Shown in pieces: positions 649-63,240 of a stretch of 64,000 bases of DNA. A program made the translations under genes and the position numbers. Position 1 is the first letter of the stretch. Each line of letters starts with the position of its first letter. The notes below the pieces were generated by a model. The model did not search any database, had not been told where the DNA came from, and saw only the letters and a program-made list of their open reading frames with translations. Origin of the DNA: Astropecten irregularis (taxonomy: Eukaryota > Echinodermata > Asteroidea > Paxillosida > Astropectinidae); assembly GCA_963971285.1 (NCBI GenBank), contig OZ020254.1, positions 10,974,001 to 11,038,000 on the forward strand, in the 5' to 3' direction.

Positions 649-765
649 CTTCCGGTATGTGTGCACTTGACACGTGTCAGAACGGTGGTACCTGCTTGGA
701 CATGGGCAGCATGTACATGTGCGTCTGCTCAGATCAGTTTCTTGGAGAGCACTGTGAAAGACCAG
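649..765 (+). CDS. EGF-A exon: one EGF-like domain
   Basis: A pyrimidine-rich tract and tttcacag precede the exon, and a GTAAAT donor follows. It is 117 bp, phase 1-1. Six cysteines include CQNGGTC and CVC; the end reads GEHC. C2-x4-T-C3 fits the O-fucose consensus. Confidence 0.78.
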
Positions 766-3700
766 GTAAATTGAACTCACACCAAACAATAATTAAATAA
801 TGACAATGTTGCTTGTCTCAAATTGTCCATTTCACACTGTGCAAAGGTATAATACATGATTGGTAATAGGTCACAGAACAGCACTTACACTTTGTCTGAT
901 CCAACATGTACATTTTATAAAAGGCCAGTGAAAATTTGAGCTCAATCGGACGTCCGAGTCACGATACCAATAAATACCAATTTCTGGATAAATACACCAT
1001 TTCAGCCGGAAATGTTCTAATGGCATGTTTCTACCAGCATTATCTTCATACCCTGTAAGTTATACGTAATTAATCTGTGAGCACTTATGTTTGAGTATGT
1101 TACCAATCCTGTATTGTACCTTTTTATTTTGTTCACTCCATCAGTGGAAACTTGGCCAAGGTGCCTTATGTGATATTAGTATGATACACCCCTTATTTCT
1201 AACATTGTTTTTGTTTGTTTGTTTATTGTTGTTTATAAAACGATGTCTTGTGGACTTACCAAGTCTTCATCAATTCAATTAAATCCGACCAACCACCAAT
1301 AAGATATCAGAAGCTATTGTATGCGGACTCCAGCAGCGAGGCAGCCTCGCTTTCGCTATAAGTATTTGCAGAGGGCCTTACCCTAATCCGCAGATGAATT
1401 CCTCACAAGTACCTAATATCGAAGGCAGGACTGGTATAAAACCATGTGCATATATTCTTAACGTTTAATCCAACCATTTGATGTTCTAACCATGTATTTT
1501 GTCTACCATAGGTATTAAAGAAAATAATGATCCGTTATATGTAAATTAATACATCTAGTACTAACATGATTACATCAGCAGATGCAACTTCGCGGGTAAT
1601 CGGCCTAACTGCCGACCCGTGCACACCGAATCCGTGCCAGAACGGTGGGCTCTGTTTCACCCGGGACCGTGTGGGAGCCAGCGGCATGACGTATCACTGC
1701 TCATGCCTACGACCTTACGGAGGTCTCAACTGCGGTATATAATAGCCACTTTGTTTGTTTGTTTCTTCATTTGCTTGTCTGTTTGCTCTTGCTTTTATAT
1801 CACGCCATGCTATGCAGTTTGTATCACCCTAACCCACCGCTGATGGCACCCAATACTTTTGTGATTAAAAAGACACGCAGTTCTTGTGTGATCGCAAAGA
1901 CACGCAATATACTGTATACTTCTTGTGTGATTGCAAAGACACGCAATACGTGTGTGATTGCAAGGGCACCCAATACTTGTGTTATTGCAAAGACACGCAA
2001 TACTTGTGTGATTGCAAAGGCACGCATTACTTGTGTGATTGCTTATAGGCACCCACTACTTAAGTTGTGTGATTGCACAGGAACGCAATACTTGTGTGAT
2101 TGCAAAGACACGCAATACTCGTGTGATTGCAAATGCACCCAATACTTGTGTGATTGTGAAAACAGTCGTGTCGGATGCTAAATAATGATTGGATTCGGCT
2201 TGGGATAGCAGTAGTTTAGACTCCTAGCCGTAGCCTAAACGAATTCAGACGCCCCTCTAGCCGTCTCATGGCTACCCCTGACAAAACACGATACTGCAAT
2301 CTCAAAGTTACAATTGCCCTAAATGGTACGGCACTTAAGGGCCACCGTATTAAATCACCGAATAATGCGTTGCTACCTTGATTCATAGCGTGTACTGAGA
2401 TCGGCAACTTCTGATTGCATACGTTTCATCATTTTCAATCATATTTCCTTATCATACACATTTCAGATCAACCATGTTTAGATCATCGACACCAGTCACC
2501 ATACTTTTCATCACGTAGATAAAAAAAATATATTCATAAATTGCCAGTCTTACTCCTTCCACTTAGTAGTTATGTAGAATATTTCTTCCGACGAAAACGA
2601 AAAAAAAACTTCGTCTTTATAACCATCAATGTTGTAGATTGTAGTCCTATAGCTCTTTCTATCGACTACAATTCTGGGAGTTCTATTGGTAGAGTAGTGG
2701 TTCTATGTGCACTGTTGATATTGAATTCTTTGCCTTGCATGGTTATGGAATTAATGGCTTATGATGTTGGCTGCTTCTTCAACTCTATATGTACATGCGA
2801 ACATTGAACTGCAACGCAGAAATCAGCACGCTGGGCAATACTATATAAGGCGTTCAGCTATACTGATGAAAACAAGCTAAAGATTATCCTTCAAAACCTA
2901 GCCATTTGGGTGCCTGTACATAATGTTCTCTAGATGTTCAAAATGAAGCCACAGACGCAGTCGGAGCAGTCAAGCTCATACACCATTTCCAAAATGAGCC
3001 TTCTGGGCGCAAGTTTTCAATATTACCTATTATTACACTAGCAACCACATGATGTTCAACAGGAAATATCAGTAAAATCAGGGGCGGGACAAAATAAGGG
3101 TCAAGTTTGCAGATGTAAGATGGACTCCAGTAAAGATTGTTGAATACTGTTTAGTGAGTACATTTGCTGATGTTGGTTTTACCAGCTTGCACTAATTATG
3201 AGCTGACGGTGCACGTGCAGAGACAGACGGGGCAAAAAATAATGCATCTTTGGATCATGCTTGTACTAGATTGAATTTAAGAAAAAAACTCGGTTCACTC
3301 GTTGTACAGAACAATTGGAGACTTTGGAGAACCGGTCTTCAAGTCAACAGCGCACGCGCATGCAAGTTGTGAGCATGCGCGCGTTGTTTGGCGCATGCGC
3401 TGTTGTGCATGCGCGTGCGCTGTTGACTTGAAGACCGGTTCTCCAAAGTCTCCCATTCTTCTTCAATTTTATAAAGTTGTTTCTCACTGCGTACCACTGA
3501 AGCGAATTATCAACGGTTGTTCCTGTGCGACGCACGTTTATTAACCCATCCCCACAGTGTGATTTTGGACTTTACCAGTGCACTCTTCAGTAGTGTATTA
3601 CTGCTTCTGCTTTGCTCTTGTTTAATGCTGAGATTTTCTTTTTAAAAGGTGCAGCTGGAGTCGCGGCAATTACTAATCCATTATACAAACCATCATCTAT

Positions 3701-6700
3701 TTATAAACTGTCATTGTCTTTCTACTTAGCACCCTTGCACATTTCAGCTTAAGCTTGGTATTGACTGTGCTTGCTTAATTATATGCATTTTACCTGCGCT
3801 TTTCATTTTTCACCTTCCCTTTTCTATTTCAGAATCATTTATTTTGGAAGCGGTCTTTTGAATCTGTTGTTTAAATCGTTTCTCACGTGTGAAGGTTTAA
3901 TTTGCAACTTACTTGGAGAAGTTGGCGCCCTCTATCGTACACTTTGGTCCACTTGGCGAATTGCGAAGTGTCCATTACAAAAAAAAATAAAAGAAGACAA
4001 AATTAAGAGATTGGGGGGGGGGGGGGGGGTTGTCGACCAAAAAGACAAAGAGCATTTAACATGATGTTCCGTGTTCCGTGATTGACCTTTTCAATACTGG
4101 GGGTCTGTTTTACGTCTGAAATGGAGTTGTAGTCTTGCACTCAAGTCGAGATAAAAAACCAAACCGCCTCTCGAACACTGCTTCGGTTTTCGCACTGTTA
4201 ATAATGCATTCTCGGTCTCCTTCGTGTAGTTTGACTGAGTCATTTTGGTTTGCTTTTTCCCAGATGAGGCCGTAGTGGAGGCTAGGCAGACATCACCGTG
4301 CGATGTTAACCCGTGTCAGAACGGAGGTGCATGCGAGGAGTCGGCCACCGCCGAAGGAGGGTACGTCTGCCAGTGCACCGAATCTTGGAAGGGGAGTAAC
4401 TGCCAGACACGTAAGTAGCCAAACTTTGAGATGCCGTTCAGTTATGATGCACTTTTGGGCCGTTCCGTCTATTCGATAGTGTCCCTCTGAAACTGGCGAC
4501 GTATTTGGAGTTTGTTGCATGAACAAGCCAGTAATCGACTTCACAAAGTCCTACGATCGATCGTAACTAGAGTTACGAAGGATAACTCGTCGTATTCTAT
4601 GCTATGCACCTCCAACGATTTAAGATGAGTTTGGTAACATCATCGACCTCTGATACTACTGATGCAATTATTACATGCGATCCGTACCCAAGCCACCATG
4701 TCTTTTAGTCTTTACAGTTGTACCTTGAGGGATCGCAGACTGTCTTACGATTCTTAACTTTGTTTCGTTGTTGGCGGTTTTTCCTTCAGTGCCCTGTGAT
4801 ATGGATCCGTGCTTAAACGGAGGAGATTGCTTCACTGGCTACAGGAACAAGGGCAGCTACATGTGCAGGTGCGCCCCAGGCTACAAGGGAAATAACTGCG
4901 AGATCGGCGGTAAGTTGACCAAACGAAACGGTGGAATTTCACAAAAAGAAACTGCTATTATCGTAATGAGGGCGTATACGAAACGGAGGCTCATGCTCCA
5001 GCATTGACATCCATGGGCATGGTTTTTCATTGAAGCTGAAGCTTTGTTTCAAACCACAGAATCTACTTCCGAACCGCAGCCAAAAGGCTCGATTTTGATA
5101 CCCGTATTTTGGATATGGATTCACGAAACGGAGCCGAAGCCCGAGACGGAGCTTGAGCCTGAGCCTCCGTTTCGTACGCCCCGAGAGATAATCTGGGCAA
5201 TGAAGCCAGCAGATTGCGCCCTCTTGCTTCTAAAGCATGCTACATGCGACATTCGATCAATTCATGGTATATGTATGCCTACTGTCATATTGAAGAAACA
5301 CTTTTCACATGCGTTTGTTAGAGGGCACGTACAACATTGATAACAGACCAAAAGAGAAATACTGTTTATTTCAGTGCCTGAAATGCTAAATTTTTCCATA
5401 AAGGAGTACAACCAAAGACCAAAGAACAGTTTTGATCTCGGGTGACAATTTGCATTTCTTTGACAAAAACCATAAAAGTATTTGGAGTTAGCTTTAAGAT
5501 CAATTTCCTTTACTTTTTATGCAGAATCTTGTATGCCTTTTCTTGCAATTTGCTTTTTGTCTTTTCTCTCAGATCCGTGCATGGATAACCCATGCGGACA
5601 AGGCAACCTGTGTATACCGAACAGGGACGATAACACGTTCTCGTGCATGTGCCCTTGCTCGCCAGGGGGCTCCTGTCAGAACTCAGGTAAGGTTTTAGCC
5701 GACTTATCTTGGTTTTTCTACCAGGTTTTATTACCTCCTGTTAGTAAAATGTTTCCGAACAATTTTCCTGCATTGCAGAACCTCGCCATTGTCTTTGAAT
5801 TCGGGCGATTTCGAATAGTGCGCCATGAGAGTTTGCGTATATAGGCCAATCACAATACACGGGTTTACACCTTGGCGGCCATCTTAGATTTTGATCGCAA
5901 CTTCAAAACGAGGCACTTCCACGCATGCGCACTTTTCGAAGTGTAAACCCGTCCATTCGTCGGTTTTGATCGCGACTTCAAAACAAGGCACTATCACGCA
6001 TGCGCACTTTTAGAAGTGTAAACCCGTGTATGCGCGTTATTCACGGTGCATCCATGTTGTCACCTTCCTTGTATACCCGTTCGAAAGGGTAACATCAGTT
6101 CTAAAAAAGAAAGTGGGTACCAGACTATTTTGAATCCAAGCCTCAGTTTGATTGCACTGCTTCGAATGTAGGACGGATGCACCGTGAATAAGGTCCATTC
6201 ACGGAATTTGTCGACCTAATGCGCGTCTAGGGGCCAAGTTCACAGCGCTGCTAAGCACAAACATTTGCTTAGCACAAAAAATGTCCCTTGCCCAATAAAA
6301 CAAACCGCAGCTAAACATTTCATTTGATGTTCATGGTCAGTCAACAACAGCCAAAGAACAATCACAAGCGATACACAATACATGGATATTTGGTTGTTAA
6401 CCCTTGTTTTTATTAAAACTGGTATGTCATGCTTAGCAAATGTTTGTGCTAAGCAGGACCGTGAAATTGGCCCATGGAAATGGTGCAGAGATTACGCGCC
6501 TTCTCATTGGCCGAGCGCGTTGCAAACTCTCGGTGGCATGAAAAGGTTGAAAGGCATGATCTTATACATAAAGGTGGAAATTGAGTGGTCATTACCTTTG
6601 TGGATGTCTTTTTTTCAAATTAAAAAATATATTGAACGTCAGCAACGTGGATTAGGCCTATGAATTTTGTTTTCGAAACACGGATAAAGACAGAACAGGT

Positions 6701-7445
6701 GCGTCAAGAATGACAATTCATTTTAAAGCAATCTCCGTTTCGATTTAACTAACCATCCACAGGAGGTGATGGAACGGATAATTCTGGCTCTACGGACGGG
6801 GGCTCCGGCACGACGGACGGCAGCACGGGATCGGGCAGCGATTCGGGCAACTCTGGCAGCGGCACCGGTAACACCGATAACACCCTACCCCAGACCGGCA
6901 ATGATGGCTACAACGGCGCCGTCGGCCACAGGTGCGATATGATGATGAGAGAGTCCCACAACTGCAGCAATCACGGAGTCTGCAGCTACGACGGCGACCG
7001 AGACATCGTGATCTGTACGTGTGAGGCCGGCTACAGCGGCGACATCTGCCAGCGCGGTAATGGTGCCTCCAGCGGGAGTGACTCGGGTAGCTCCGGTAGT
7101 GACTCGGGCAGCTCCGGTACTGACTCGGGCAGCTCCGGTACTGACTCGGGAACCTCCGGTACTGACTCGGGCAGCTCCGGTACTGGCTCGGGAACCTCCG
7201 GTACTGGCTCGGGAACCTCCGGTGGGACTGATGACGGCACCTTGGCGCAGACCGGCGACGGGGCAAGCAGCAGCAGCGGCGGCCAGGTGTCTGGCAATTC
7301 TGATGAATCGCGGTGTGCACGTATGATGCGGGAGACCAGCCAGTGCAGTGGCCACGGCTACTGCAACATTGACACGACCAGGGACATTGCAATTTGCAGA
7401 TGTAACGATGGCTATTCTGGTGTCAGGTGTCAGAACGAGGAGTAG
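649..7445 (+). CDS. EGF-A: 3' part of a multi-EGF-domain secreted protein gene (5' end outside window)
   Basis: Six coding exons are visible: 649-765, 1582-1734 (or from 1579), 4264-4410, 4790-4909, 5573-5686 and the terminal 6763-7445. All are flanked by AG acceptors and GT donors, and all internal junctions are phase 1. The five internal exons each encode one EGF-like domain with the C-C-C-CxC-C pattern. The terminal exon encodes two more, separated by Ser/Gly/Asp-rich linkers. No signal peptide or transmembrane segment lies in the window; by analogy with EGF-B and EGF-C the missing first exon should encode a signal peptide, which is inference. EGF-A is the most divergent member: it has the shared 7-cysteine domain (exon 5573-5686), but its last domain has 6 cysteines where B and C have 8. 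Function is unknown; an extracellular structural, adhesive or ligand-like role is typical of such domain strings. Confidence 0.8.
844..1123 (+). mobile_element. MITE, family B
   Basis: AAGGTATAATACATGATTGG to TTACCAATCCTGTATTGTACC, with internal deletion of the GATC-rich block. Confidence 0.7.
1582..1734 (+). CDS. EGF-A exon: one EGF-like domain
   Basis: The domain runs from DPCTPNPCQNGGLC to CSC and GGLNC. The acceptor is a tandem cagcag, so the start may be 1579 or 1582; both keep phase 1. The donor GTATAT is weaker than elsewhere in the family. About ten residues precede the first cysteine. Confidence 0.7.
1866..2160. repeat. 27-bp minisatellite in an EGF-A intron
   Basis: Roughly ten imperfect copies of a 27-bp unit with the core tgtgattgcaaagacacgca. 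Because 27 is a multiple of three, it gives open frames on both strands; these are by-products of periodicity, not genes. Confidence 0.85.
2165..3312. other. EGF-A intron sequence without recognised content
   Basis: AT-rich intron between the minisatellite and a palindromic MITE. No EGF cysteine pattern, tRNA or convincing repeat copy was seen. Confidence 0.5.
3313..3457. mobile_element. Palindromic MITE, family F
   Basis: Near-perfect inverted repeat with arms reading GGAGACTTTGGAGAACCGGT, then CATGC/GCGC-rich sequence toward the centre. A second good copy is at 34835-34975. Decayed copies are at 25815-25919 and about 41400-41503. Confidence 0.85.
4264..4410 (+). CDS. EGF-A exon: one EGF-like domain
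   Basis: Acceptor tttttcccag and donor GTAAGT are both strong; 147 bp, phase 1-1. About a dozen residues precede the domain, which runs from CDVNPCQNGGAC to CQC and GSNC. Confidence 0.8.
4531..4650. mobile_element. MITE, family O (TIR near GTCGATTTCAC), decayed
   Basis: Resembles the better copy at 15035-15174: ATCGACTTCAC at one end, a central ACGATCGATCGTAA block, and GTTTGGTAAC near the other end. Located in an EGF-A intron. Confidence 0.5.
4790..4909 (+). CDS. EGF-A exon: one EGF-like domain
   Basis: Acceptor tttttccttcag, donor GTAAGT, 120 bp, phase 1-1. Cysteine pattern CDMDPCLNGGDC, then CRC and GNNC. Position in the exon order matches EGF-B exon 4 and EGF-C exon 2, just before the 7-cysteine exon. 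Confidence 0.82.
4969..5182. mobile_element. MITE, family I (TIR ACGAAACGGAGGCTC)
   Basis: Inverted ends ACGAAACGGAGGCTC / GAGCCTCCGTTTCGT enclose a conserved interior including TTCATTGAAGCTGAAGC and GAATCTACTTCCGAACCGC. This family recurs at least eight times in the window. Confidence 0.75.
5573..5686 (+). CDS. EGF-A exon: variant 7-cysteine EGF-like domain
   Basis: Acceptor tttctctcag and donor GTAAGG; 114 bp, phase 1-1. The order is DPC, NPC, LC, then SCMCPC and GSC, giving seven cysteines, an odd number for an EGF fold. The same variant occurs in EGF-B exon 5 (28381-28491) and EGF-C exon 3 (49517-49627), always with the extra cysteine two residues after C5. Confidence 0.82.
5855..6030. 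mobile_element. MITE, family D (TIR ACACGGGTTTACAC), two units
   Basis: Ends read ACACGGGTTTACAC and GTGTAAACCCGTGT, with an internal GTGTAAACCCGTCC junction, so this is a dimer of the roughly 90-bp element. The interior holds ACTTCAAAACGAGGCAC and GCATGCGCAC. Confidence 0.75.
6230..6473. mobile_element. MITE, family H (TIR GGGGCCAAnTTnA)
   Basis: About 244 bp with GGGGCCAAGTTCAC at the left end and GTGAAATTGGCCC at the right, and CTTAGCACAAA blocks inside. Related copies are at 11850-12092, 29288-29526 and 35817-36050. Confidence 0.75.
6763..7445 (+). CDS. EGF-A terminal exon: Ser/Gly/Asp-rich linkers and two EGF-like domains
   Basis: Acceptor aaccatccacag; TAG stop at 7443-7445. The encoded tail is about 226 residues in two matching modules: a Ser/Gly/Thr/Asp linker, an L-x-QTG-x-DG segment, then an EGF-like domain (RCDMMMRES...NCSNHGVC...ICTC...DIC and RCARMMRET...QCSGHGYC...ICRC...VRC). 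The second linker (about 7060-7290) is an 18-bp tandem repeat encoding SGTDSGS-type hexapeptides. Such linkers are flexible and often O-glycosylated. Both domains have a CSxHGxC motif like the last domain of B and C, but only six cysteines. Confidence 0.85.
7075..7225 (+). repeat. 18-bp coding repeat in the EGF-A terminal exon
   Basis: Consecutive 18-bp units of the type GGTACTGACTCGGGCAGC, each coding six residues of Gly/Ser/Thr/Asp. Copy number is likely variable, as in similar repeats; that is inference. Confidence 0.85.
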
Positions 7446-39894: not shown

Positions 39895-40359
39895 GTGAGT
39901 CTGTATTTACGTCTACGCACTTAGTCGAAATAAAAATTTAAAAAGCCTGCGTGTAGCTAGGAGTGTGTAGGATGAGTGTCACTGGTGGCAATTGTTACCT
40001 CATAGTCTTATTTCAAATCTCATCTCATAGAAACCTCGAAGATCCCGGACGATAGCATGAGGCCCCTACTTTCAGAAAGTAAGACACTGTTACTCAAGGC
40101 ATTCCTAAGACATCACTCCAACAATAAAACAACAGTAGAGACAATTCCTAATAAATTGGCAGCTAAAGAAAAGAAGGATTTTGGTCTGATCTTTTTTTCC
40201 AATTCCCAGGCCTTTTTTTCCTAATCTTCTGATCTGCTGTCCAACCAAACATTGATGACAAACACGTTAAAGATTAAACAAAGCTTTTGTAATAGGAGAC
40301 TTTTGGAGCGGGCTGTCGATAGAGGGCAGCACACAATCGCTCTCCTGAAAACTTTTGTT

Positions 40360-46190: not shown

Positions 46191-46224
46191 AAGACGAACT
46201 AAGCCAACTCGTAATCATCACAGA

Positions 46225-46279
46225 ATGAGGCTACCATTGGGTTCACTGATTGCACTCGCTGCTCTCTGTCTATGCGCAC
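46225..46279 (+). CDS. EGF-C exon 1: signal peptide
   Basis: ATG at 46225, 18 codons plus one base, donor GTAAGT. Nearly the same residues as EGF-B exon 1 and EGF-D exon 1. Confidence 0.88.
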
Positions 46280-49200
46280 GTAAGTAGATTGTATTACAGT
46301 TTTTTTTCGGAGCGTGTGTGATCATGGAGGAAAGGAAAATTGCTCCATGGTGTGATAAAGAGAGCCACCAGAATCCGTTCATTTAATGGACTCTGGTGCA
46401 ATGTGGTGGTCGCTGCCTGCTTAGAAAAATTGTAGTCCGATAAATTTGACTTTTTTCCCCAAAGGCCTGTTGGTTTGTGGCACAAAAGGTTATATATTCC
46501 TACTTAATTATATAAATCTATTGGGATGAAGATGGAGATCAAAGGTATCAGTTAGGGTGGTATCGCCAAATTGCCAGACGTACGTCCTTCCACGACGTTT
46601 CTTTAAAGGTACTATTATACAGACATCTTCACAGATTTACCTATAACGTACAGGGTATAAAGATGGTGATGGTAGAAACATACCGTTTAATTAATTTTTC
46701 ACTGAAATGTTGTATTTATCTAGAAAAGATTTAAACCGGTGACCAAATTGATTTTTGATCTTTTAAATATCAAGAATAAAAGAGAAAAAGACATAAATAA
46801 GAAATACTTTGGCCGTTTTCGCTGTTTTCTCGACAAGTGGGCACCGTGTGGGATTGAAATGTTCACAGATGACTGTTATTGTATCTTCCTTGATATTTTT
46901 GCCCATTAATCTGTATTTTTTTGACAAAAACCAAAGTATGATACTACCTTCAAAGGTAGTATCATACTTTGGTAAGAAACCAAAACAGAATTGTTCACCG
47001 TAATTTCAGGGTATGAAGATGGCGGTGGTAGAAACCTACCGTTAGAATATTTCCGCCTGAAATGGTGTATTTATCCAGAAATTAGTAAAACAACGACCGA
47101 AAATAAAAGAGAAAAGACTTAAGAAATACTGCGGCCGTTTTTCACGATTTCCCCCAAAAGTGGGCACCGTATGGGACTGAAATTTTCACAGATGACTGTT
47201 ACTGTATCTGTCTTGATATTTTTGCCCATGAATCTGTACTTCTTTGACAAAAACCTAAGTATGATACTACCTTTAATACACTATTTCAGGCGGAAACATT
47301 TTAACGGTATGTTTGTTTCTACCAGCACCATCTTCAAACACTCAAAGTAATAATCAAATCTGTTAACTTGTCTGTTTTGGTTTATTACCAATGTTGTACA
47401 TGCCATTTTAAGGAGTTGTATTAGATCCTCTTGAATGGTATATACATTATACCGGATACATGCATGTATATTAACTATTGTGTTTGATCACTAGTCGATG
47501 GAGGGGGGGGGGGGGGTTGCAAATTACTCTTCCAAGTACGTATTCCCAATGACAATGGCTATTATACACATCTTCTTGGGAAACAGGACTGTGTGTACGT
47601 CACGATCATACACCTGGGGCGACCTCCACATTTCAAAAGGCATTGTAAACATAAAACCAGCTCATTGTGTTGTTAGCATAAAACTAACGTCAGGTAAAAG
47701 CCAAGTCGGGGCTCATTTTGGGTCTCAATATTTGTTGTTTTGCCTGCGGGGACACCCAAGCAATCATGGTTCAAATTAATCGCGCTTTTTCAACGTGTTT
47801 GAATGTACCTCACTAATGGAAAAGATGTGTTTTCCATTATAATAGGATAATCATTGTGTGTTTGGTGGGCAGTGCACTTTCGGATAGAAAACATTCAATT
47901 GCTTGGTACTTATTACCGTGCTGTAAGGTTTTGTGTAACTACTTGGGATAATGGCTGAAAGACTGATGGTATACAGCACCTGCTGGCCACTGATGTTTTT
48001 TTAAACAATGAAGGTCGTCGCCAGCTAGGTCAGTCAGGAAACAGTCAGGATAAGCAAAAGATTACAGTCACTCCAAAACAGTCTTAAAAATATACCTCAA
48101 TTCAAATGTCAAAATAATAAAGTTCTGTACATAAATAGCCGTAAAAATACATATTTTTGACGCAGTAAACGTTGTGCTTCATATCCGACTCCATGTTGGC
48201 CAAACACTGCCATTTTAAATGGGTTTCCCGCTCAATTTTCAGGCCACTCCTGAACTCTTGTGAAAGTTCGCGAACTCTCGAAGGGTCCGAGAGCGTCTGA
48301 ACGCTGCAAATAAATGTCGCTGTGTGCCTAATTATCGCGTACGCTGCGCACTGACTGTGAGTTCCCTGTATCCGGTATTGGTGCATAGTGGGAGCTAAGT
48401 TCCCTGTCAAGATAAAGTATTTCATTATTAAGGTTCTGGAGTGAATTCTGGCACTGCTGGGAGAGAATATTAATGAGTTTAAGGGAGGTCTGGTTGAGGA
48501 CTCGGTTCCACTTCTTCTGTAGAGTGGGGGAGAGGGTACCTAAAGACGGGGTGGATGACACTTTGAGTTATAAAGGTGATGGGAATACCGGAGTGCTTTC
48601 TCCTTGGTCTTCCTGAGCTGCTGAAAAAAAAAATCAATGGCGTTAGTCATACCTGTAGAGAGAAGAGACAAGGTGACAGCATGGAACTAAACAAAGACTA
48701 AACAGACCATGTATGAAAACATGAAAACAACTTACAAGATGAGGAGGATCACCACGAAGGTATACAACAGCAGAAGGAATATTAGGAATAAGGTCAATAC
48801 AAGTAATGAACTGCTATAACTGCTCATCAGCCAAAATGACCTAAAATGACCTGAAACTTAAATGTCTAGTTTATGTTCATCTTGGTGTTAGCTGTTATGG
48901 AACTCAGTATCAAAATAATGTGACGTATTTCTTTATGACGTAGATACAAATCCCGTGATCGAGAATGCGTGCGATGGTGAACCATGTCTTAATGGCGCAA
49001 CGTGCATGATTCCAAGCACTGATGCTGCATTCTTCAAGTGCTTTTGTCAAGAAGGATACATGGGAATATTTTGTGAGATACAGGGTAAGTTAGCTGCCGG
49101 GTGGGGTGGGGTGGGGTGGGGTGGGATGTGATGGGATGGGATGGGATGGGATGACATGGGATGGGATGGGGTGGGGTGGGGTGGGAAGGGATGTGATGGG

Positions 49201-52200
49201 GTGGGATGGCATGACATGGGATGGGATGGGGTGGGGTGGGGTGGGATGGGATGGGATGGGATGTGATGTGATGTGATTGGATGGGATGGGATGGCGTGGG
49301 GTGGGATGGCATGGGATGGGATTGGATGGGATGGGATGGCATAGGATCGGGTGGGATCATGGGATGGGACGGGATGGCATGGCATGGGATGGTATGGGGT
49401 GGGGTGGGATGAGATAGTCTGGGATGGGATGGGATGGCATGGGGTGAGGTGTGTTGCGATGGGATGGGATATAATTCTAGGTGTATGTTAATAATATCAT
49501 TCATCTGTACCCTTAGATCCCTGTCTCAGCAACCCTTGTGGCAACAACCGCAAGTGCCTCCCAGATAAAGACGGCCTCTATGAGTGTTTGTGTTCGTGTA
49601 GCGATGATGGCACATGTACACTACAAGGTGAGTCTACTACCTCAATTTAATCATAGAGCTACAAACATTGTAGACAGCTCCATGCTTCAAGTATGTCTGT
49701 ATAATATACATGTACTTAATTACCAGTGCACTTTTGGTATATTTCTCCTATATAGCCAGATTAGCCACTTTGAGACATGAGGTCGCATTACCTAATACCG
49801 GTCACCATTATGCCGTCTATACTCACACATATACATGTATTGTCAACATTTGGTCAGTTGAGGTTTTCCAATATTGGGCCTAAAACACGTCTAACAATTT
49901 ATATTTCGCGTTGGCCGCATCGGTGGTACCAAGGGCCAATTGCTTGCAGATTCTGGTCCAAAAGAGGATTGTTGCTGAGTGATGTGGTATTTTTTTCTTT
50001 TCTCGTGAAGATGCCTGTAGCAGTTCACCGTGTCAGAACGGCGGCTCCTGTATCGTCGACGGTAGCGATTACCAATGCCAGTGCCCACAGGGATTTTATG
50101 GTAACAACTGTCAGAATTCCAGTAAGTGACACTCACTGTACCGTAGCAAAAGGCGAATAGCCTTGGTTTTTCATGTGGGAATTAAATTGTGTCCACCCAA
50201 GTGCAATTGAAAAAAATAAAAACCTGCTGGAAAATATTGGATCTTTCAGTGTTTCCGCGCCAATTACTTGAAAAACACGCTGGTTATGTATAGATTGTAT
50301 TTCTACTCCTAATAAAACATAGAACACAATTATAGCAGGAGCGAATTTTACAAGATGACGTCACGTGCGAAGGGTTTAGCCCTCCCCACGCCTTCCCCAC
50401 CGTACGTCCCCTGACTCTTTTTATCCCTCGTCACTCTCTCCCCCATCAAAAGAAATATTGGCTCTTCTAACCCCCGCAAATATTGGCTCTAGAACCGGCC
50501 CTGGCTAAAGCTCAATGCATTGATATTAAAAATATGGTGTCCTAAAAAAGGTCATTTGTAATGCATGTGTACCGCCACTGCGTGACATGCACATCAAGCT
50601 GTGACAGATACACATCGCCCAGTGAAATACATACTTCGCGCTGAGTGACAGATACACATCGCGCAGTGAAAGACATAGGCCTACACTTCGTGCAGTGACA
50701 GATACATACATGTACACATATATCACGCAGTGACACACACACATCGCCCAGTGACAGATACACTTCGCGCAGTGAAAGACATACACTTCGCGCAATTACA
50801 GATACACATCGGACAGTGACACACACACGTCGCCCGGTGACAGATACACTTCGCGCAGTGAAAGATATACACTTCGCGCAATTACAGATACACATCGGAC
50901 AGTGACACACACACATCACGCAGTGATAGACACACATCACACAGCGATATACACATACATTACAAGTGACCTTTTTGTGACACCATGTCGAAAATATAGG
51001 TGTTGTTGCATCAAAGCGCACAGAACTTATGGCGATGGATAACCGTCAAACTGAAACAATTCCTATTATACGTATTCGTGTCGTTTGTAGATATCTTTTC
51101 GAAAAAAAAAAAAAAACCAGAAGGAAACAAAATGTTTAAACTAATTTGTGTGCGTTCTGTTTTCTGTGATAGCTGGTGTCTGTGACAGTTCGCCTTGTCA
51201 AAATGGCGGTACCTGTTCACCCTTCCTTACCGATTACATTTGCATTTGTGATACGGGATACACTGGTATCAACTGCGAGAGCACTTACCAAGATCCATGC
51301 AGTCAGGTTCAATGCCTCAACGGGGGCACGTGCGTCAACCTCTTAGACAGCGCGTACTGCAATTGTGCACCCGGGTATACTGGACAGGCTTGCGAAACAG
51401 GTAAGTTACACTTATACCGTTCAGTGGAAGAAGCGAATAGCATAAACCAACAACAGGATTTTACTTGGAACAAAATGATAGGCGTTGTTGTTGAATGTTA
51501 TTGTTTATATCAGCAGCATGGAGAACAATGACATACTAAATGGTTGCCATTTTATTTTCAGCTATTTTTTTCACCTGCAAATCGCTAATGGCACATGTAC
51601 ACTACAAGGTGAGCCTACTGCGTCAATTTAATGTAGACCGCTCCATATGCTTCACGTATGTCTGTATTAGGCACAATAGTTCATTACTGGTGCGCCTCTG
51701 GTATATTTGTCCTCGATTTCAGGAACGGCTAAGACAGATCGTAACATGCTTATCAATCTTAATTGCTAAGCGAAGTGTGATGTCAAACAATACTAGTTAC
51801 CATGGGAACGTGAACAACTCATCTAAAAGATAAATCGCAAATCGACCATAAATTAATTTGAAACTTTGAGGAATGAAGTCGTATTACATAATACCGAAAC
51901 GATAGGCATTGTTGCATCGGATCTGGGTTTGGGGGGGGGGGGGGGGGGGGGGAGGGGTCACCCAAACCTATTAAAGCGGCAGAGCAATTGTTTATAATTA
52001 TCAGCAGTATGGAGAACAATAACATACTCAATAGGTGCCATTTTATTTGCAGCTATTTTTCAACTGCAAATCGTCCGCGGGTTTCAAGATTCAACTCCGA
52101 TTCCGATTGCAGACTTTGAGACTTGATTTCATCGAAATTCGGGCTCTTTTTTATTTTCAGCCCCCTACCTTTTTTCCCGAAAGCTAGCAACCAAAATAAT

Positions 52201-55200
52201 TCTTAAACCAGATTATTGAACGTGGTGTTTGTAGATATCAACCTTTTGAATGAAGAAAACAAAAACCAAGAAAATGTGCCTTTTTTATATTATTTTTGTT
52301 TGTATAGTTGATCCCTGTACCAGTTCGCCGTGTCAACATGGCGGGTTCTGTATTTCCAACGATAGCGGTTACGTTTGCAATTGCCAGCTGGGATTCATTG
52401 GTACCAACTGCGAGGGCGCTCCGTGCGGCGCAGGGTACTGCTATCACGGGGCCACGTGTTTGGTAGACGCATATGGCGAGCCTTGGCAATGCCTTTGTTC
52501 ACAGGGTTACATCGGGCAAATGTGTGACATTCCAGGTAAGTTTAACTCACTAATCACTGCGTACGCCATGCGTACAGAGGGGGAGGGGGTAAAAATTTCG
52601 TGCGTTCGTACTTTATGGACGGCCCCTTACACAGGGGGTGCATTCGTTTAGCTCCCCCGGGTCGACCCCAGTCAACCTCGTCCCCATTCTCTGGCTTGTT
52701 GTGTGCAGTTAAACACGACCATTCCCAGTAAGGGCTGACTCGTGTTAGCTAAAGGAACGCACCCAGTATTTCGGTCAGAAACGAATAAACTCTATGTTTA
52801 TACCATCACCATCTTTATTCCCTGTACGTTTTAGGCAAATATGTGAGGATTACTGTTTTGGTTCCTACCAATGATTGCAGTACCTTTTAAAGGTAGTATC
52901 ATACTTTGGTAAGAGACCAAAACAGAAATGTTCACAGATTTACGTATAACTTTCAGGGTATGGAGATGATGTAAGTAGAAACCTACCGTTAAAATGTTTC
53001 CGCCTGAAATGGTGTATTTATCCAGGAATTAATAAAACAACGACCGAAAATCTTTTTGATCTTTTAAAAGATCAAAAATAAAAGAGAAAAGACTTAAGAA
53101 ATACTGTGGCAATTTTTCAATGTTTTCTCAAAAAGTGAGCACCGTATGGGACTGAAATTTCCACAGATGACTGTTACTGTATCTGTCTTGATATTTTTGC
53201 ACATGAATGGGTATTTATTTGACAAAAACCAAAGTATGATATTACCTTTAAGTCAACAAAGTTTGACCAGTTTGTGTGAACCGATGGATAACCTTCTAGC
53301 CAGCACAATTCTTAAAAGAAATGATTGCACGTGTTGTTAGTAAATACTTTTTCGGATAAAAAAGGGGACAATTTTTTGCACCAATGTGGTTTTCTTTTCT
53401 CTTCTATATAGGTCATATCTGTGACACTTCGCCGTGTCAAAATGGCGGCATCTGTTGGCAAACTGCCATCTATTCCGAATACTCTTGCCAATGCCCGTCG
53501 GAATTCACTGGTACCAACTGCGAGAGTAGTACAGACCCCTGCATCATCAGTGATATCCAATGCATCAACGGGGGTGCGTGTGAGAGTTCCCTCGGTGTGG
53601 CGTACTGCAATTGTGTACACGGGTACACTGGACAATTCTGCGAGGATAAAGGTAAGTAAGCAGAGTATATACTGTCATCGATTTCGGTAACATGTTGCCT
53701 AGTTAGGGCAACACACCTGGGCAACATGGCTTTGGGCCCTGTGTACACTAGCAACATTTGTCCACGTGTTTACCCAGCTCGTTTTGCTCTGTGTACACTG
53801 ACAGCATTTTCAGCTATACAAGGTACCTGGGCAACACGTAACCGAGATTGTTACCGAAAATGTTGACAGTGTACACTCTGCTATATTGTCATCGTGTCGT
53901 AGAAGGAGAGGCGAACTTAGCGTAAAGTAACACGATTTTACTCGAAACAAAGATAGATTAACATGTGGTGTGCTTCAATTTCTGTACAGAGATGGCAAAC
54001 TGCCTAGACAATATTTAAAAACCAAATTATCATATTTTGTCGTCTGTAGGTCAGGTACAGGATTTTGTTTGTGGCTGGGGAAAATGCTTTAACCAACATG
54101 ACTTTGCTTTTACTTTGACAGGTATCTGTGCCAGTTCGCCATGTTTAAACAACGGTACCTGTACTGCTTTGCATTATGACACTTATATCTGCTTTTGCGA
54201 GCAAGGATACGATGGTGCTAACTGTGAGAATGGTAAGTTGCTTGTAGAAAATTAATTGGATATTCTGATTTAGTGCGCAAATTAGGCTTGCCCTTCACCG
54301 ACGTGGATGAGCACTGTATACTCAGTGCTTGTGAGAGCACGTGAGAAAAAATCACATGCCTTCCCAGGCGGGACCCGAACCCACGACCTTCCGCTCACCA
54401 GCGCAGATGCCCCACCCGCCAGGCCACCGAGCCAGCTGGGGTCTGCAGGGTGATAATAATCACAATCAATATTCATGATTTACTGCGGTACCCGCCGCGA
54501 TATTGGATTCGATTCACCCTGCAGACCCCAGCTGGCTCGGTGGCCTGGCCAAGCCAATACAAAAAAACCAAGCTAAGCCGAGTCAAGCCAAACCAAACAA
54601 AACAAAACCAAACCAAGCCAAGCCAAGCCAAACCAAGGCAAGCCAAGGTAACTCAAGTCAAGCCAAACGTAACAATCCAAGCCAAACCAAGCCAATTAAG
54701 CCAAGATTCCTTACAGCTTTGTATAAGCCTTATTCGGCCAACAAGTTTTCTTTGCTTGCAACCAGTAACCTGAATAATTTGTTGGTAAAGAGCACATGTA
54801 GGCATATGGGTATGGGCTCGTTCTCTTATGAATGGTGATGATGATAATAAATACTTTTTGTGTGGCGCAAATTCCGCCAAATGACGCCCAATGCGCTCTA
54901 CTGAGTACCGTATTACTGTATTGCGATGGCTCTCTGATTTGACTTCCTCTGTTTCATTACAGTGCCTTTTAATATCTTGCCATGTCGGAAATGAAAGTAA
55001 TTCGGAATTTTTTTGGTGTACTTGTAGATATCGCGAGAAGCCGGATCTGTTACGATGGATCCGAGGAGCATTGTTCCGATGTCTTTAGGGACAACAACAA
55101 CTGCAGTCTCCACGGTTGCTGCGGCTTGTCCTCGGATAGTTCCAGTGTTTATGAGTGCAGATGTGATCCGGGCTACGAAGGAGACGACTGCAGCACCCCA

Positions 55201-55275
55201 GCACCGCTAGACTTCGATCCGTCTGTCTACATTGCGGCCCTTACCCCGGGCGAACGTGTACACATCACCCCATAA
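46225..55275 (+). CDS. EGF-C: complete secreted protein of 11 EGF-like domains
   Basis: Nine exons: 46225-46279, 48944-49084, 49517-49627, 50011-50121, 51173-51400, 52308-52535, 53412-53651, 54122-54232 and 55028-55275. Joined length is 1,473 bp, about 490 residues, with an open frame. A signal peptide ([18 protein letters not shown]) is followed by one EGF, the 7-cysteine domain, one EGF, three two-EGF exons, one EGF and an 8-cysteine terminal domain with a short tail. Counterparts of EGF-B exons 2 and 3 are missing; intron 1 carries a duplicated promoter segment instead. Five domains have CxSxPC and six have C-x4-[ST]-C. No membrane anchor is seen. A long 3' UTR with 93-bp repeats ends near AATAAA at 55850. 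Function unknown, presumably as for EGF-B. Confidence 0.85.
46436..46590 (+). other. Conserved intron-1 segment shared by EGF-B, -C and -D
   Basis: AAAGGCCTGTTGGT, CACAAAAGGTTATATATTCC, TTGGGATGAAGATGGAGATC and AGGGTGGTATCGCCAAATTG recur at 63840-63985 in EGF-D. EGF-B has a shorter match at 25765-25960, broken by a family F element. Confidence 0.6.
46607..46949 (+). mobile_element. MITE, family A
   Basis: TTAA then AGGTACTATTATACAGA; ends AAAGTATGATACTACCT and abuts the next family A element, mirroring the arrangement at 44549-45079. Confidence 0.75.
46954..48032 (+). repeat. Segmental duplication copy 2, inside EGF-C intron 1
   Basis: Near-identical to 44726-45799. It includes a family A MITE (46954-47272), a family B fragment, the poly-G run at 47502-47516 and the upstream part of the promoter, but stops before the TATA box. 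It has a 28-bp insertion relative to copy 1 at about 47695-47730. Confidence 0.88.
48328..48561 (-). other. Possible transposon-derived coding relic
   Basis: A 77-codon minus-strand frame has protein-like composition ([20 protein letters not shown], then [11 protein letters not shown], likely helical). No family can be named with certainty. It lies in EGF-C intron 1 in unique sequence. A retroelement or other transposon fragment is the best guess. Confidence 0.25.
48944..49084 (+). CDS. EGF-C exon 2: one EGF-like domain
   Basis: Acceptor atgacgtag, donor GTAAGT, 141 bp, phase 1-1. [19 protein letters not shown], ending CEIQ. Closest to EGF-B exon 4. Confidence 0.86.
49093..49471 (+). repeat. 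Degenerate (TGGGA/TGGGG)n array in EGF-C intron 2
   Basis: About 380 bp of G-rich pentamers with more variants (TGGCA, TGACA, TGTGA) than the EGF-B array at 27893-28334. It starts 9 bp after the donor and is followed by ATATAATTCTAGGTGTATGT, identical to the EGF-B intron. Confidence 0.93.
49517..49627 (+). CDS. EGF-C exon 3: variant 7-cysteine EGF-like domain
   Basis: Acceptor gtacccttag, donor GTGAGT, 111 bp, phase 1-1. CLSNPC, KC, ECLCSC, GTC: seven cysteines as in the A and B counterparts. Confidence 0.86.
50011..50121 (+). CDS. EGF-C exon 4: one EGF-like domain
   Basis: Acceptor ttttctcgtgaag, donor GTAAGT, 111 bp, phase 1-1. [19 protein letters not shown]; it resembles the first half of EGF-B exon 7. 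Confidence 0.86.
50570..50955. repeat. 21-23-bp minisatellite in EGF-C intron 4
   Basis: About seventeen imperfect units such as CACTTCGCGCAGTGAAAGACATA and CACATCGGACAGTGACACACA. It yields long minus-strand open frames that are periodicity artefacts. Confidence 0.88.
51173..51400 (+). CDS. EGF-C exon 5: two EGF-like domains
   Basis: Acceptor tttctgtgatag, donor GTAAGT, 228 bp, phase 1-1. [19 protein letters not shown], then [19 protein letters not shown]; the second half is akin to EGF-B exons 8/9. Confidence 0.87.
51510..52075. repeat. Local duplication within EGF-C intron 5
   Basis: GGAGAACAATGACATACTnAAT, TGCCATTTTATTTnCAGCTATTTTT and CTGCAAATCG occur at 51515-51585 and again at 52008-52075. 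A 22-bp poly-G run (51931-51952) lies between. Confidence 0.7.
51585..51608 (+). pseudogene. Exon-3-type fragment in EGF-C intron 5
   Basis: AATGGCACATGTACACTACAAG followed by GTGAGC is the 3' end of the 7-cysteine exon (49606-49627) with its donor; similarity continues about 60 bp into the intron. No acceptor or upstream coding part remains. Confidence 0.65.
52308..52535 (+). CDS. EGF-C exon 6: two EGF-like domains
   Basis: Acceptor tttgtatag, donor GTAAGT, 228 bp, phase 1-1. [19 protein letters not shown], then [19 protein letters not shown]. Confidence 0.87.
52635..52764. mobile_element. MITE, family G
   Basis: GGGTGCATTCGTTTAGCT to AGCTAAAGGAACGCACCC; third copy of the family. Confidence 0.83.
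52891..53247 (+). mobile_element. MITE, family A
   Basis: TTAA on both flanks; AGGTAGTATCATACTTTGGT to AAAGTATGATATTACCT. It is preceded by a family B right-end fragment (52775-52888). Confidence 0.85.
53412..53651 (+). CDS. EGF-C exon 7: two EGF-like domains
   Basis: Acceptor cttctatatag, donor GTAAGT, 240 bp, phase 1-1. [19 protein letters not shown], then [21 protein letters not shown]. Neither domain fits the O-glucose consensus. Confidence 0.87.
53662..53880. mobile_element. MITE, family J
   Basis: Begins 11 bp after the exon 7 donor with ACTGTCATCGATTTCGGTAA; ends GAAAATGTTGACAGTGTACAC. The family-typical intron start (AGAAGGAGAGGCGAA) resumes downstream, so the element inserted next to the splice site without destroying it. 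Confidence 0.72.
54122..54232 (+). CDS. EGF-C exon 8: one EGF-like domain
   Basis: Acceptor actttgacag, donor GTAAGT, 111 bp, phase 1-1. [19 protein letters not shown]; counterpart of EGF-B exon 11. Confidence 0.87.
54279..54444 (-). mobile_element. tRNA-derived SINE S1, minus strand
   Basis: On the minus strand: CAGCTGGCTCGGTGGCCTGG, then GTGGGTTCGGGTCCCGCC (B box), and the tail GTGAAGGGCAAGCCTAATTT. An inverted head fragment lies at 54527-54551, so two copies inserted close together. Confidence 0.7.
54527..54705 (+). repeat. SINE head fragment followed by a GCCAA-rich degenerate array
   Basis: 54527-54551 repeats the SINE head CCAGCTGGCTCGGTGGCCTGG. From 54545 the sequence runs through AAGCCAA/AACCAAA variants, the same intron position as the (AGGCAAGCCA)n array of EGF-B. 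Confidence 0.65.
55028..55275 (+). CDS. EGF-C terminal exon: 8-cysteine EGF-like domain and C-terminal tail
   Basis: Acceptor tgtacttgtag; TAA at 55273-55275; about 82 residues. [19 protein letters not shown] and DDC give eight cysteines, as in EGF-B. The tail ([10 protein letters not shown] onward) is about 28 residues longer than in EGF-B. Confidence 0.86.
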
Positions 55276-59262: not shown

Positions 59263-59267
59263 CTGTT

Positions 59268-59464: not shown

Positions 59465-59519
<55 letters not shown>

Positions 59520-61138: not shown

Positions 61139-61600
61139 ATGGGATGTGCTACGTGCTTCAAGAGGTTTATTCGAGCCGTGGTGCCCCACATAATCGTCAT
61201 TTCGGCCCTCTTTGGCTACCTGATCCTAGGGGCGGCCGTCTTCAGCTACCTCGAGACCGGCCACAGCGACGTGGAGGTGGTCTACTCCGAGGTGGGAGAG
61301 TTCTTGGATAAGGTCCGGAACACCACGGCAGACCGGGAGGTGCTGGTGGGTGTTCCAGGGGAGTACGACGTTAACGGCACGGCTGATGTACCGGGGGTCG
61401 TGATGGCCTCGGCGGCCCGGCCGCCGGACGTGGGCTCGACCGCTAAGACCACGGACATGGATGAGGTGGTGGACGAAGTGTAACTGAGGAGCATATGCGA
61501 CCGGAGTGGACATGGGGCAGGATGCAAGCCGTGAAGAGCAAGCGAGCCTGGAGTTTCTCTAGCTCCATGCTGTTCTGCTTAACCACTATCACAACCATAG
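61139..61600 (+). CDS. K2P (KCNK-like) two-pore potassium channel, first coding exon, frameshifted as read
   Basis: ATG at 61139 opens MGCATCFKRF and the first transmembrane helix (LFGYLILGAAVFSYLE, a typical K2P M1), then an extracellular cap region ending at TAA 61481-61483. Two bases out of phase, the same exon continues as RPEWTWGRMQAVKSKRAWSF and LFCLTTITTI-G before GTGAGT at 61601: the pore helix and start of the TIGYG filter. K2P channels carry background potassium current in the plasma membrane as dimers. The relic copy has one more base in the 61465-61490 interval, so a one-base deletion here is likely; sequencing error is the alternative. Remaining exons are not in the window, or lie beyond the EGF-D start. 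Confidence 0.8.
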
Positions 61601-62436
61601 GTGAGTCTGTATATTTATGTCTACGCAATTGGTCGAAATAAATGAATAAACACGTATCATAGAATGAGTGTCACTTAATGGTAATTAGCCTTATTTAAAA
61701 TATCATATCATAGGAACCGATAGCTCAAACACCTAGGCCAATTACTTATTTAAAACGTATAAGATCCCTTACACATGTCATTCCCACAAACTCACTACAA
61801 AAGTACAATAAAAAAAATAGTGAGGATAGAGGAAATTCCCTTGAAATATTGGTCACTAAAGAAAAAAAAATCTCACATTTTTCACGCAGATCTCCCCTTT
61901 CCCCAATTTCCCGTCCTCTTTTCCACTTTTCCTATGTCCAACCAAACATTGACGACACTATAAACACGTCTGACCACCAAAAGATCAAAAATTCCAAAAC
62001 TTGTGACTGTCCAACTGATGAATTCTGAAAACTGCATGTCTGTCTATGCTGTCTATATAACTACACGTGTCTCCATGTACTGTGGTATGTGCAAAGCTTC
62101 TATAATAGGCCACGTAATAGTCAATTTGTCATAAATAATTGAACGTATAATGGCGGCAGTCTTTAATAGCCCCTTGAAAATACAATGAAGAGGCAATTGG
62201 CTATAAGTAGGCCTTTAAAATTATGTTATGAACAAGAACTTGAATTATGCCTCAAGTGTTTTCGACTGACAGGAAAAAGAGATATTCTAATGTCTAGCCG
62301 GCGGTTACTGTACGTAGGGGTGTGTGCGTGGCCGGTCGTGTGGGTGCATGCACGGTACATCCGTGCATCTCAGCTAGCTCGGTACGTACCGGGTGCCCCG
62401 TACTGATCGCTCGCCGGGAACAGCTTCTTAGCCTTG
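61601..62436 (+). other. K2P intron 1 sequence
   Basis: Matches 39895-40260 in order (GTCTACGCA, GTCGAAATAAA, GAGTGTCACT, TCCAACCAAACATTGA) with gaps. The second pore exon was not found before the window edge. Confidence 0.5.
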
Positions 62437-63185
62437 GTCAAGGCTGGGGGGGGGGGGTGCAAATTATTCTTCCAAGTACGTGCTCCAAGGGACAATGGGT
62501 ATTCACCTTCGTGGGAACTGGACTGTGTGACTGTGTGTACGTCACAATCATACACCTGGGGGTCGGACTTTCACATTTCAAAAGGCATTGTAAACATAAA
62601 ACGAGCACGTCAGGTCAGAGTCAGGTCAGGCATCAATTTGGATCTCAACTTTTTGGCTGCGGGGACACCCAATCAATCGTGGTTCAAAATTATTAATCGC
62701 GCTTTTGTCAGCGTGTTTGAATGGACCTACTAATGGAAAATATGTTTCATCAATCACCATTATGATCATTGTGTGTTTGGCAGTGCACTTTCGGATAGAA
62801 AGGTTTTGTGAAGCTCGGGCTGTTCTCCCTTGGGAAAAATGGCCGAAAGACTCCAGTATATAGCAGCTGCCGGCCACTGATGATTTTTTGAATCATTGAG
62901 GTCGTCACCAGCTAGGTCATGGTCATGACGTACGTATACACAGCCCTGTTTCCAAGAAGGTTGGGCTATGCATTATCCTAGTTAGGAGAACTACTTTGGA
63001 TGTATACAATTTACATTGTTCCAACCCACATCAAGCAGTGACCAATCAGTATCGCATATGCTGTAATTATTCACTACGTATTCGAAATGGCCCATGTTAG
63101 GTAAAATTATTGTATGACCTTCCAACGAAAGTGTATAAAAACCGGTTGATCATTGTGAGTGAGCGTATACCGTAATCAACATAGA
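62437..63185 (+). promoter_or_regulatory. EGF-D promoter region
   Basis: Homologous to 45303-46224. It contains poly-G at 62447-62457, TTCCAAGTACGTGC, a CACCTGGGG block, and the TATA context. The leader from the TATA to the ATG is 52 bp. Confidence 0.65.
63134..63140 (+). promoter_or_regulatory. EGF-D TATA box
   Basis: TATAAAA in CAACGAAAGTGTATAAAAACC, the same 20-bp context as EGF-C. Confidence 0.72.
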
Positions 63186-63240
63186 ATGAAGGTACTGGTG
63201 TGTTTACTGATTGCACTCGCTGCTCTCTGCCTATGCGCAC
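63186..63240 (+). CDS. EGF-D exon 1: signal peptide (rest of gene outside window)
   Basis: ATG at 63186; [18 protein letters not shown] plus one base, then GTAAGT. Length and phase equal those of EGF-B and EGF-C exon 1. Downstream exons lie to the right of the window. Confidence 0.85.

What the first reader, a model, noticed from the sequence alone, without database searches (positions are those of the whole stretch)
649..63240. Tandem array of four secreted EGF-repeat genes with diverging exon content
The sequence shows four same-strand genes (A partial, B and C complete, D start only). The signal-peptide exons of B, C and D are near copies; the 7-cysteine exon is shared by A, B and C; the terminal domain type is shared by B and C. 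Domain number differs (15 in B, 11 in C). A clustered, fast-changing family of secreted all-EGF proteins without a membrane anchor is not one I can match to a named system. It could serve matrix, adhesive, reproductive or recognition roles; that is inference.
Basis: partly seen in the sequence, partly recalled or inferred. Interest (0 to 1): 0.75.

Follow-up and report, generated by a model that had tools for sequence, protein, structure and literature searches.

The report
Tandem secreted EGF-repeat genes, sand star
A starfish chromosome carries four neighbouring genes, made by repeated local duplication, that encode secreted cysteine-rich chain-like proteins built almost wholly of EGF modules; they look like fast-changing structural secretions, but what they do is not known.

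Summary
The window lies in a genome whose size, chromosome lengths and mitochondrial length fit the sand star Astropecten irregularis. Four same-strand genes code for EGF-repeat proteins with a signal peptide and no predicted membrane anchor. B (635 aa, 15 EGF-type modules) and C (490 aa, 11) lie in the window. D (691 aa, 16) is completed by flanking DNA. A (463 aa, 7) has a tentative signal exon 5.8 kb upstream.

The signal exon's DNA was found at three places in the genome: B, C and D. The array grew by duplication of a block of about 20 kb with an EGF gene plus the first exon of a channel gene; copies of that exon follow B, C and D. Exons were gained, lost and homogenised. The C/D ends evolve at dN/dS about 1, yet all 41 cysteine sites compared in six exon pairs are kept.

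Most likely these are acidic structural glycoproteins of a matrix, mucus or adhesive secretion; that is inference. Two features of the footprint proteins Sfp3/Sfp4 are not met. This is a new member of a known kind.

The parts
649..765 (+). Gene A, EGF exon 1 (gene A's tentative signal exon lies outside the window, 5.8 kb upstream)
1579..1734 (+). Gene A, EGF exon 2 (weak splice sites, tentative)
4264..4410 (+). Gene A, EGF exon 3
4790..4909 (+). Gene A, EGF exon 4
5573..5686 (+). Gene A, 7-cysteine EGF exon
6763..7445 (+). Gene A, last exon: two terminal-type EGF modules with Ser/Gly-rich linkers, stop codon
25014..25068 (+). Gene B, signal-peptide exon
26062..26196 (+). Gene B, EGF exon 2
26691..26813 (+). 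Gene B, EGF exon 3
27742..27879 (+). Gene B, EGF exon 4 (matches C exon 2)
28381..28491 (+). Gene B, 7-cysteine EGF exon
28937..29170 (+). Gene B, double-EGF exon 6
30557..30781 (+). Gene B, double-EGF exon 7
31424..31642 (+). Gene B, double-EGF exon 8 (recent duplicate of exon 9)
33044..33262 (+). Gene B, double-EGF exon 9
33790..33906 (+). Gene B, EGF exon 10
34362..34469 (+). Gene B, EGF exon 11
35161..35384 (+). Gene B, terminal 8-cysteine domain exon with stop
39257..39934 (+). Decayed pieces of the first exon of a channel gene (read as two-pore potassium channel), copy after gene B
46225..46279 (+). Gene C, signal-peptide exon
48944..49084 (+). Gene C, EGF exon 2
49517..49627 (+). Gene C, 7-cysteine EGF exon
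50011..50121 (+). Gene C, EGF exon 4 (protein identical to D exon 2)
51173..51400 (+). Gene C, double-EGF exon 5
52308..52535 (+). Gene C, double-EGF exon 6
53412..53651 (+). Gene C, double-EGF exon 7
54122..54232 (+). Gene C, EGF exon 8
55028..55275 (+). Gene C, terminal 8-cysteine domain exon with stop
61139..61602 (+). Frameshifted first exon of a channel gene (read as two-pore potassium channel), copy after gene C
63186..63240 (+). Gene D, signal-peptide exon (rest of D lies at window coordinates 65578-74291, outside the window)

Best explanation
A tandem array of four secreted EGF-repeat genes in the sand star Astropecten irregularis. B, C and D arose by unequal exchange that repeatedly copied a block of about 20 kb holding one EGF gene plus the 5' exon of a neighbouring channel gene (which I read as a two-pore potassium channel). 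Phase-1 exons of one or two modules then allowed EGF modules to be added and lost without breaking the frame. The products are exported, cysteine-rich (about 10-15%), very acidic chains of Notch-type EGF modules without the calcium-binding motif, ending in a variant EGF that in B, C and D has two extra cysteines. Shown by sequence: gene structure, predicted signal peptide and lack of a membrane anchor, duplication history, cysteine conservation. Inferred: they act as stiff, O-glycosylated building blocks of an extracellular matrix, mucus or adhesive secretion, in which surface residues and chain length can drift while the disulfide fold is kept, and the terminal domain may cross-link chains.
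For: Four open gene models with signal peptide and stop. Pfam finds only EGF-type families at E <= 0.001 in A, B, C and D. No 19-residue stretch after the signal peptide has mean hydropathy above 1.22; pI is 4.05-4.21. The signal exon's DNA was found at 3 places, B, C and D; the other 63 of 66 matches hit only a repeat in the query's first 94 bases (40 of 128 candidates scored). The terminal domain's best hits are C, D and B; all others are at E >= 5e-4 (150 of 224 candidates scored). Channel-exon copies after B, C and D, with 1.7 kb around the copies after C and D 94% identical; its pore segment matches Ion_trans_2 over cut-off. Intron as well as exon similarity between C and D, 76-97%, and internal duplications in B and D. 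C/D ends dN/dS 1.04 over 134 codons, with Cys kept at 14 of 14 (C/D, two exon pairs) and 27 of 27 (B/C, four pairs) sites against 59 of 102 and 71 of 149 others. O-fucose motif in 33, O-glucose in 17, O-GlcNAc in 14 of 41 regular modules; calcium-binding motif in 0 of 41 (motifs recalled).
Against: No RNA or protein evidence of expression; exon 2 and the signal exon of A are tentative, and phase 1 was a condition of the searches that gave the exons of A and D. dN/dS near 1 also fits relaxed constraint on dispensable genes. Motif hits do not show glycosylation, and no background rate of these motifs was measured. The terminal-domain structure model was poor (mean pLDDT 55.6), so cross-linking is a guess. 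No other starfish genome was searched, and the genome-wide search for the 7-Cys exon did not complete.
Confidence: 0.5

Rival explanations
1. They are tube-foot adhesive footprint proteins, that is orthologues of Asterias rubens Sfp3/Sfp4a/Sfp4b, proposed to form the cohesive meshwork of the footprint.
For: Sfp3, Sfp4a and Sfp4b have repetitive EGF modules, high cysteine and AC1-gland expression, and Sfp4b (334 aa, with signal peptide) is Ser/Gly-rich (passages of PMC9382459); gene A has EGF modules joined by Ser/Gly linkers.
Against: The paper calls the Sfp3/4 modules calcium-dependent; 0 of 41 regular modules here carry the calcium motif. Sfp3 and Sfp4a carry a FAMeT domain; none of the 22 FAMeT matches in this genome lies on this chromosome, 7 of 22 are on C11. 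No Sfp sequence could be fetched for a direct comparison.
Confidence: 0.15
2. They are rapidly evolving recognition proteins (egg coat or immune), in which module shuffling and amino-acid change are selected for variety.
For: dN/dS 1.04 at the C/D ends, 1.66 and 1.68 in the B/C and B/D penultimate exon, cysteines kept in the pairs compared, module number variable.
Against: No ratio above 1 is significant (Fisher p 0.58 to 1.0), the C/D middle exons have 0.50 (p = 0.054) and the B/C terminal exon 0.39 (p = 0.008); relaxed constraint fits as well. No lectin, ZP, scavenger or other recognition domain.
Confidence: 0.2
3. They are soluble Notch-pathway modulators that compete through Notch-type EGF repeats.
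For: The best solved relatives of protein C, the only one searched, are Delta-like 1 and Notch1 EGF repeats; Notch-type O-glycosylation motifs.
Against: No DSL domain in any of the four, no calcium motif (0 of 41), variable module number.
Confidence: 0.07
4. The array is decaying: recent copies without selected function.
For: dN/dS near 1 at the C/D ends; broken channel-exon copies between the genes.
Against: All four frames are open over 463-691 codons, with splice borders that are good except in A exon 2, and all 41 cysteine sites compared are kept.
Confidence: 0.08

Closest known systems
Sea-star footprint proteins Sfp3, Sfp4a, Sfp4b (Asterias rubens)
   Same: Footprint proteins with repeated EGF modules, cysteine-rich; Sfp4b has a signal peptide and is Ser/Gly-rich, as gene A is (PMC9382459 passages).
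   Different: Those EGFs are described as calcium-dependent and Sfp3/Sfp4a carry FAMeT; here no calcium motif and no FAMeT.
Notch and Delta-like EGF regions
   Same: Same EGF subtype; best PDB matches of protein C by sequence.
   Different: No DSL or other non-EGF domain and no hydrophobic span.
Fibropellins of sea urchin (architecture recalled)
   Same: Echinoderm secreted EGF-repeat matrix proteins (recalled).
   Different: The recalled CUB and avidin-like domains are not found here.
EGF-repeat adhesive proteins of mussels and other marine animals
   Same: Secreted, EGF-rich; the protein PVFP-5 (recalled as a green-mussel foot protein) is among the PDB matches of protein C; PMC9382459 (passage) calls tandem EGF repeats a common feature of marine adhesives.
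   Different: No evidence of adhesive-gland expression here; similarity is only at the EGF level.

Membership tests
Sfp3/Sfp4-type sea-star footprint proteins | Repeated EGF-like modules | tested here: met
Sfp3/Sfp4-type sea-star footprint proteins | Calcium-dependent EGF modules | tested here: not met
   by motif only: 0 of 41 regular modules carry it before the first cysteine; feature from PMC9382459 passage
Sfp3/Sfp4-type sea-star footprint proteins | FAMeT domain (Sfp3, Sfp4a) | tested here: not met
   none in A-D at E <= 0.001; 0 of 22 genome matches on C18
Sfp3/Sfp4-type sea-star footprint proteins | Ser/Gly-rich (Sfp4b) | tested here: inconclusive
   highest in gene A: Gly 18.0%, Ser 13.5%; B-D Gly 11.0-14.1%, Ser 9.1-10.9%
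Sfp3/Sfp4-type sea-star footprint proteins | Expression in type 1 adhesive gland cells | not testable with these tools
   no RNA data
Sfp3/Sfp4-type sea-star footprint proteins | Full-length sequence similarity to the Asterias proteins | not testable with these tools
   their sequences were not held in the collections I could search
Notch ligands (Delta/Jagged) | DSL domain and transmembrane anchor | tested here: not met
Fibropellins | CUB and avidin-like domains (recalled) | tested here: not met
Teneurins | Teneurin parts beyond the EGF region (membrane span, YD shell; recalled) | tested here: not met
   EGF_TEN, an EGF model, passes its cut-off in B, C and D (137.4, 94.4, 164.4 bits against 65) but no other teneurin domain matches; no hydrophobic span
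Tandemly duplicated gene family | Head-to-tail copies with shared flanking non-coding DNA, strong matches only at one locus | tested here: met
   for B, C and D; A is a divergent relative in the same array
Tandemly duplicated gene family | Lineage-specific: absent from related species | not testable with these tools
   no other starfish genome held

The most novel reading that the evidence does not exclude
A sand-star-specific family of secreted EGF-chain proteins under diversifying selection for surface variety (self or mate recognition, or defence), whose chain length and surface change by exon duplication and gene conversion inside an array that is still expanding and probably varies in copy number between individuals.
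Probability: 0.15. Interest if true: 0.6.

Novelty: new member of a known kind. Interest (0 to 1): 0.35.

Why it matters
It is a clearly readable example of how a secreted modular protein family grows: block duplication that drags a neighbouring channel exon along, then exon gain, loss and homogenisation between copies. If expression places it in tube feet, mucus or egg coats, it would add an array to the known starfish structural secretions. If copy number varies between animals, it offers a direct test of drift against selection on EGF-chain length.

Tried and rejected
Amphioxus as host was my first guess; the GFP family search gave nothing (which rang in no control either, so by itself it shows nothing), and the mitochondrial tRNA order and code and the genome statistics pointed to a starfish. 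Identity with Sfp3/Sfp4 was considered and not supported. A structure model of the terminal domain was too poor to search with. The channel frame at 61 kb was first taken for an intact gene; it is frameshifted, while the copy at 80 kb is in frame over its first exon. Genome-wide searches for the 7-Cys exon and for A's terminal exon did not complete, so whether the 7-Cys exon occurs elsewhere in the genome is open. Three paper searches on starfish EGF families or arrays listed, by title and abstract start, nothing on this cluster: 11 of 11 papers listed; 12 of 17; 8 of 1,722, mostly unrelated. Passages only were read of PMC11480709, PMC9382459, PMC7037938, PMC10448888 and PMC10970066.
Full report
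What organism. The window is C18:10974001-11038000 of a 475,729,200-base assembly in 168 sequences. The contig with the mitochondrial COX1 is 16,335 bases long and COX1 reads through with the echinoderm code. The genome note of the sand star Astropecten irregularis gives 475.80 Mb, 22 chromosomes, a 16.34 kb mitochondrial genome, and chromosome lengths that include 27.23, 20.61, 18.85, 15.41 and 14.44 Mb (passages of PMC11480709); contigs C11, C17, C20, C23 and C25 are 27.22, 20.61, 18.85, 15.41 and 14.44 Mb. I take the species as near certain.

Gene models. Reading frames and splice sites gave four genes on the + strand. In window coordinates: A from a tentative signal exon at -5177 (outside) to 7445, 463 aa; B 25014-35384, 635 aa; C 46225-55275, 490 aa; D 63186-74291 (end outside), 691 aa. 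Each joined frame runs from ATG to its first stop at the end, and all introns in the models are phase 1. For B and C the phase fell out of the analysis; for the inner exons of A and D, and for A's signal exon, phase 1 was a condition of the search. EGF-type modules: A 7, B 15, C 11, D 16, which is 49 in all: 41 regular modules found by the pattern, three 7-cysteine modules (A, B, C) and five terminal-type modules (two in A, one each in B, C, D), the last eight counted by eye from the translations. A's second EGF exon (1579-1734) has weak borders, and its signal exon was picked by eye from five candidate rows in about 40 kb, one of which, at -17526, is also 55 nt; both exons are tentative. A pattern scan from 80 kb before the window to 100 kb after it found no regular EGF module outside A-D (two far matches, at 132.6 and 151.5 kb, do not look like EGF; the pattern does not see 7-Cys or terminal-type modules).

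The family. Pfam finds only EGF-type families at E <= 0.001 in the four proteins; the terminal exon of B alone matches no family. Outside the signal peptide no 19-residue stretch reaches a mean hydropathy above 1.22, so a membrane anchor is unlikely; pI is 4.05 to 4.21 and cysteine is 9.7 to 15.1%. In the terminal domain B and C carry two more cysteines than the A copies, and so does D. The 7-cysteine exon is common to A, B and C. D shows neither it nor the exon type that precedes it in B and C. Within 244 kb the C terminal domain finds D, B and both A copies. In the whole genome its strong hits are C, D and B (E 8e-53, 2.5e-22, 8e-10); the next is C11 at 5e-4, and A follows at 0.004 and 0.02 (150 of 224 candidates scored). 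The signal exon's own DNA was found at three places in the genome, B, C and D; the other 63 of 66 rows match only a dispersed repeat in the first 94 bases of the query (40 of 128 candidates scored). A's tentative signal exon is only 28-39% identical in protein to the others, so it would not be found that way.

How the array grew. Between C and D not only exons but introns and flanks align: 1.7 kb at 90.7%, 0.56 kb at 94.0%, 0.47 kb at 96.6%, the 3' end (0.95 kb) at 75.7% and the 5' flank (0.55 kb) at 79.9%. After each of B, C and D lies the first exon of the same channel gene: in decayed pieces at 39.3 kb, frameshifted at 61.1 kb, in frame at 80.1 kb. The stretch 60000-61716 matches 78945-80655 at 94.4%. 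The pore segment of the 61 kb copy matches Ion_trans_2 just over its cut-off (24.1 bits against 22.5), while the longer first part matches no family; that it is a two-pore potassium channel is my reading from recall. More such pore segments follow at 106-148 kb. Signal exons are 21.2 and 17.0 kb apart and channel exons 21.9 and 18.9 kb apart, so the copied unit was about 20 kb. Inside genes, B exons 8 and 9 are 97% identical in nucleotides, though the 0.7 kb around them is 85% identical, and D carries an internal duplication of 1.1 kb at 94%. No channel exon was found between A and B, so A looks like an older, separate relative.

Selection. For C against D, the middle exons have dN 0.039 and dS 0.077 (261 codons, ratio 0.50, p = 0.054), while signal, penultimate and terminal exons together have dN 0.279 and dS 0.267 (134 codons, ratio 1.04). 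Because introns show the same gradient, I infer that the middle was homogenised by exchange between the copies. At the ends amino-acid change runs at the silent rate. Still, cysteines are kept at 14 of 14 sites against 59 of 102 other sites (C/D, penultimate and terminal exons, p = 0.002) and at 27 of 27 against 71 of 149 (B/C, four exon pairs, p = 4e-8). The signal exons were left out of that count. The fold is under constraint and the surface far less so. Ratios above 1 (B/C and B/D penultimate exon 1.66 and 1.68; B exons 8/9 2.79; D internal duplication 1.27) are not significant (p 0.58 to 0.74), B/C over four exon pairs gives 0.92, and the B/C terminal exon has 0.39 (p = 0.008), which speaks against a general claim of positive selection.

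How it most likely works. Of 41 regular modules 33 carry the O-fucose motif, 17 the O-glucose motif, 14 the O-GlcNAc motif, 1 the hydroxylation motif and none the calcium-binding motif (the motifs are recalled, and no background rate was measured). By sequence the closest solved structures to protein C, the only one searched, are Delta-like 1 and Notch1 EGF stretches. I infer secreted, disulfide-stiffened, O-glycosylated acidic chains used as structural units of a matrix, mucus or adhesive secretion. The extra-cysteine terminal domain might join chains, but its model is too poor to say (mean pLDDT 55.6).

Comparison with known systems. The nearest functional precedent is the footprint proteins Sfp3, Sfp4a and Sfp4b of Asterias rubens, expressed in type 1 adhesive gland cells (passages of PMC9382459). 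Gene A's Ser/Gly linkers recall Sfp4b. But those modules are described as calcium-dependent, and Sfp3 and Sfp4a carry FAMeT; here 0 of 41 modules have the calcium motif and 0 of 22 FAMeT matches lie on this chromosome, while 7 of 22 lie on C11. So membership is not claimed. Sequences of the Sfps could not be fetched. A sea-urchin adhesive candidate with similarity to these Sfps has CUB and calcium-binding EGF domains (passage of PMC7037938), which again differ.

Verdict. It is an array of a known kind of gene, probably lineage-specific, with an unusually legible history; its function is unknown and the mechanism offered is inference.

Noticed in passing
own genome C30:5583045-5654045: About 140 of the 149 matches (all but nine) lie in this 71 kb stretch, all on one strand, about 380 bases apart or multiples of that. 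Each match is weak (E 0.02 to 0.5) but without stops: it looks like a giant tandem array of tenascin-like EGF exons.
   Followed up: no
window 61139-61602 and 39257-39934; window coordinates 80086-80550 and 106-148 kb (outside): Copies of the first exon of a channel gene between and after the EGF genes, and further channel pore segments downstream: a neighbouring channel gene cluster.
   Followed up: partly
window 27907-28334 and 49102-49470: TGGGA repeat expansions sit in the matching intron of B and of C, just before the 7-cysteine exon.
   Followed up: no
window 46111-46213: A 16-base tandem repeat, dispersed through the genome, sits between the TATA box and the ATG of gene C; the TATA box is at -189 in C against -52 in D.
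   Followed up: partly
own genome C131:32162-33484 and C25:9951047-9952018: A COX1 frame open in the standard code on a 103 kb contig (possibly bacterial, from a symbiont or contaminant), and what looks like a nuclear copy of mitochondrial COX1.
   Followed up: no
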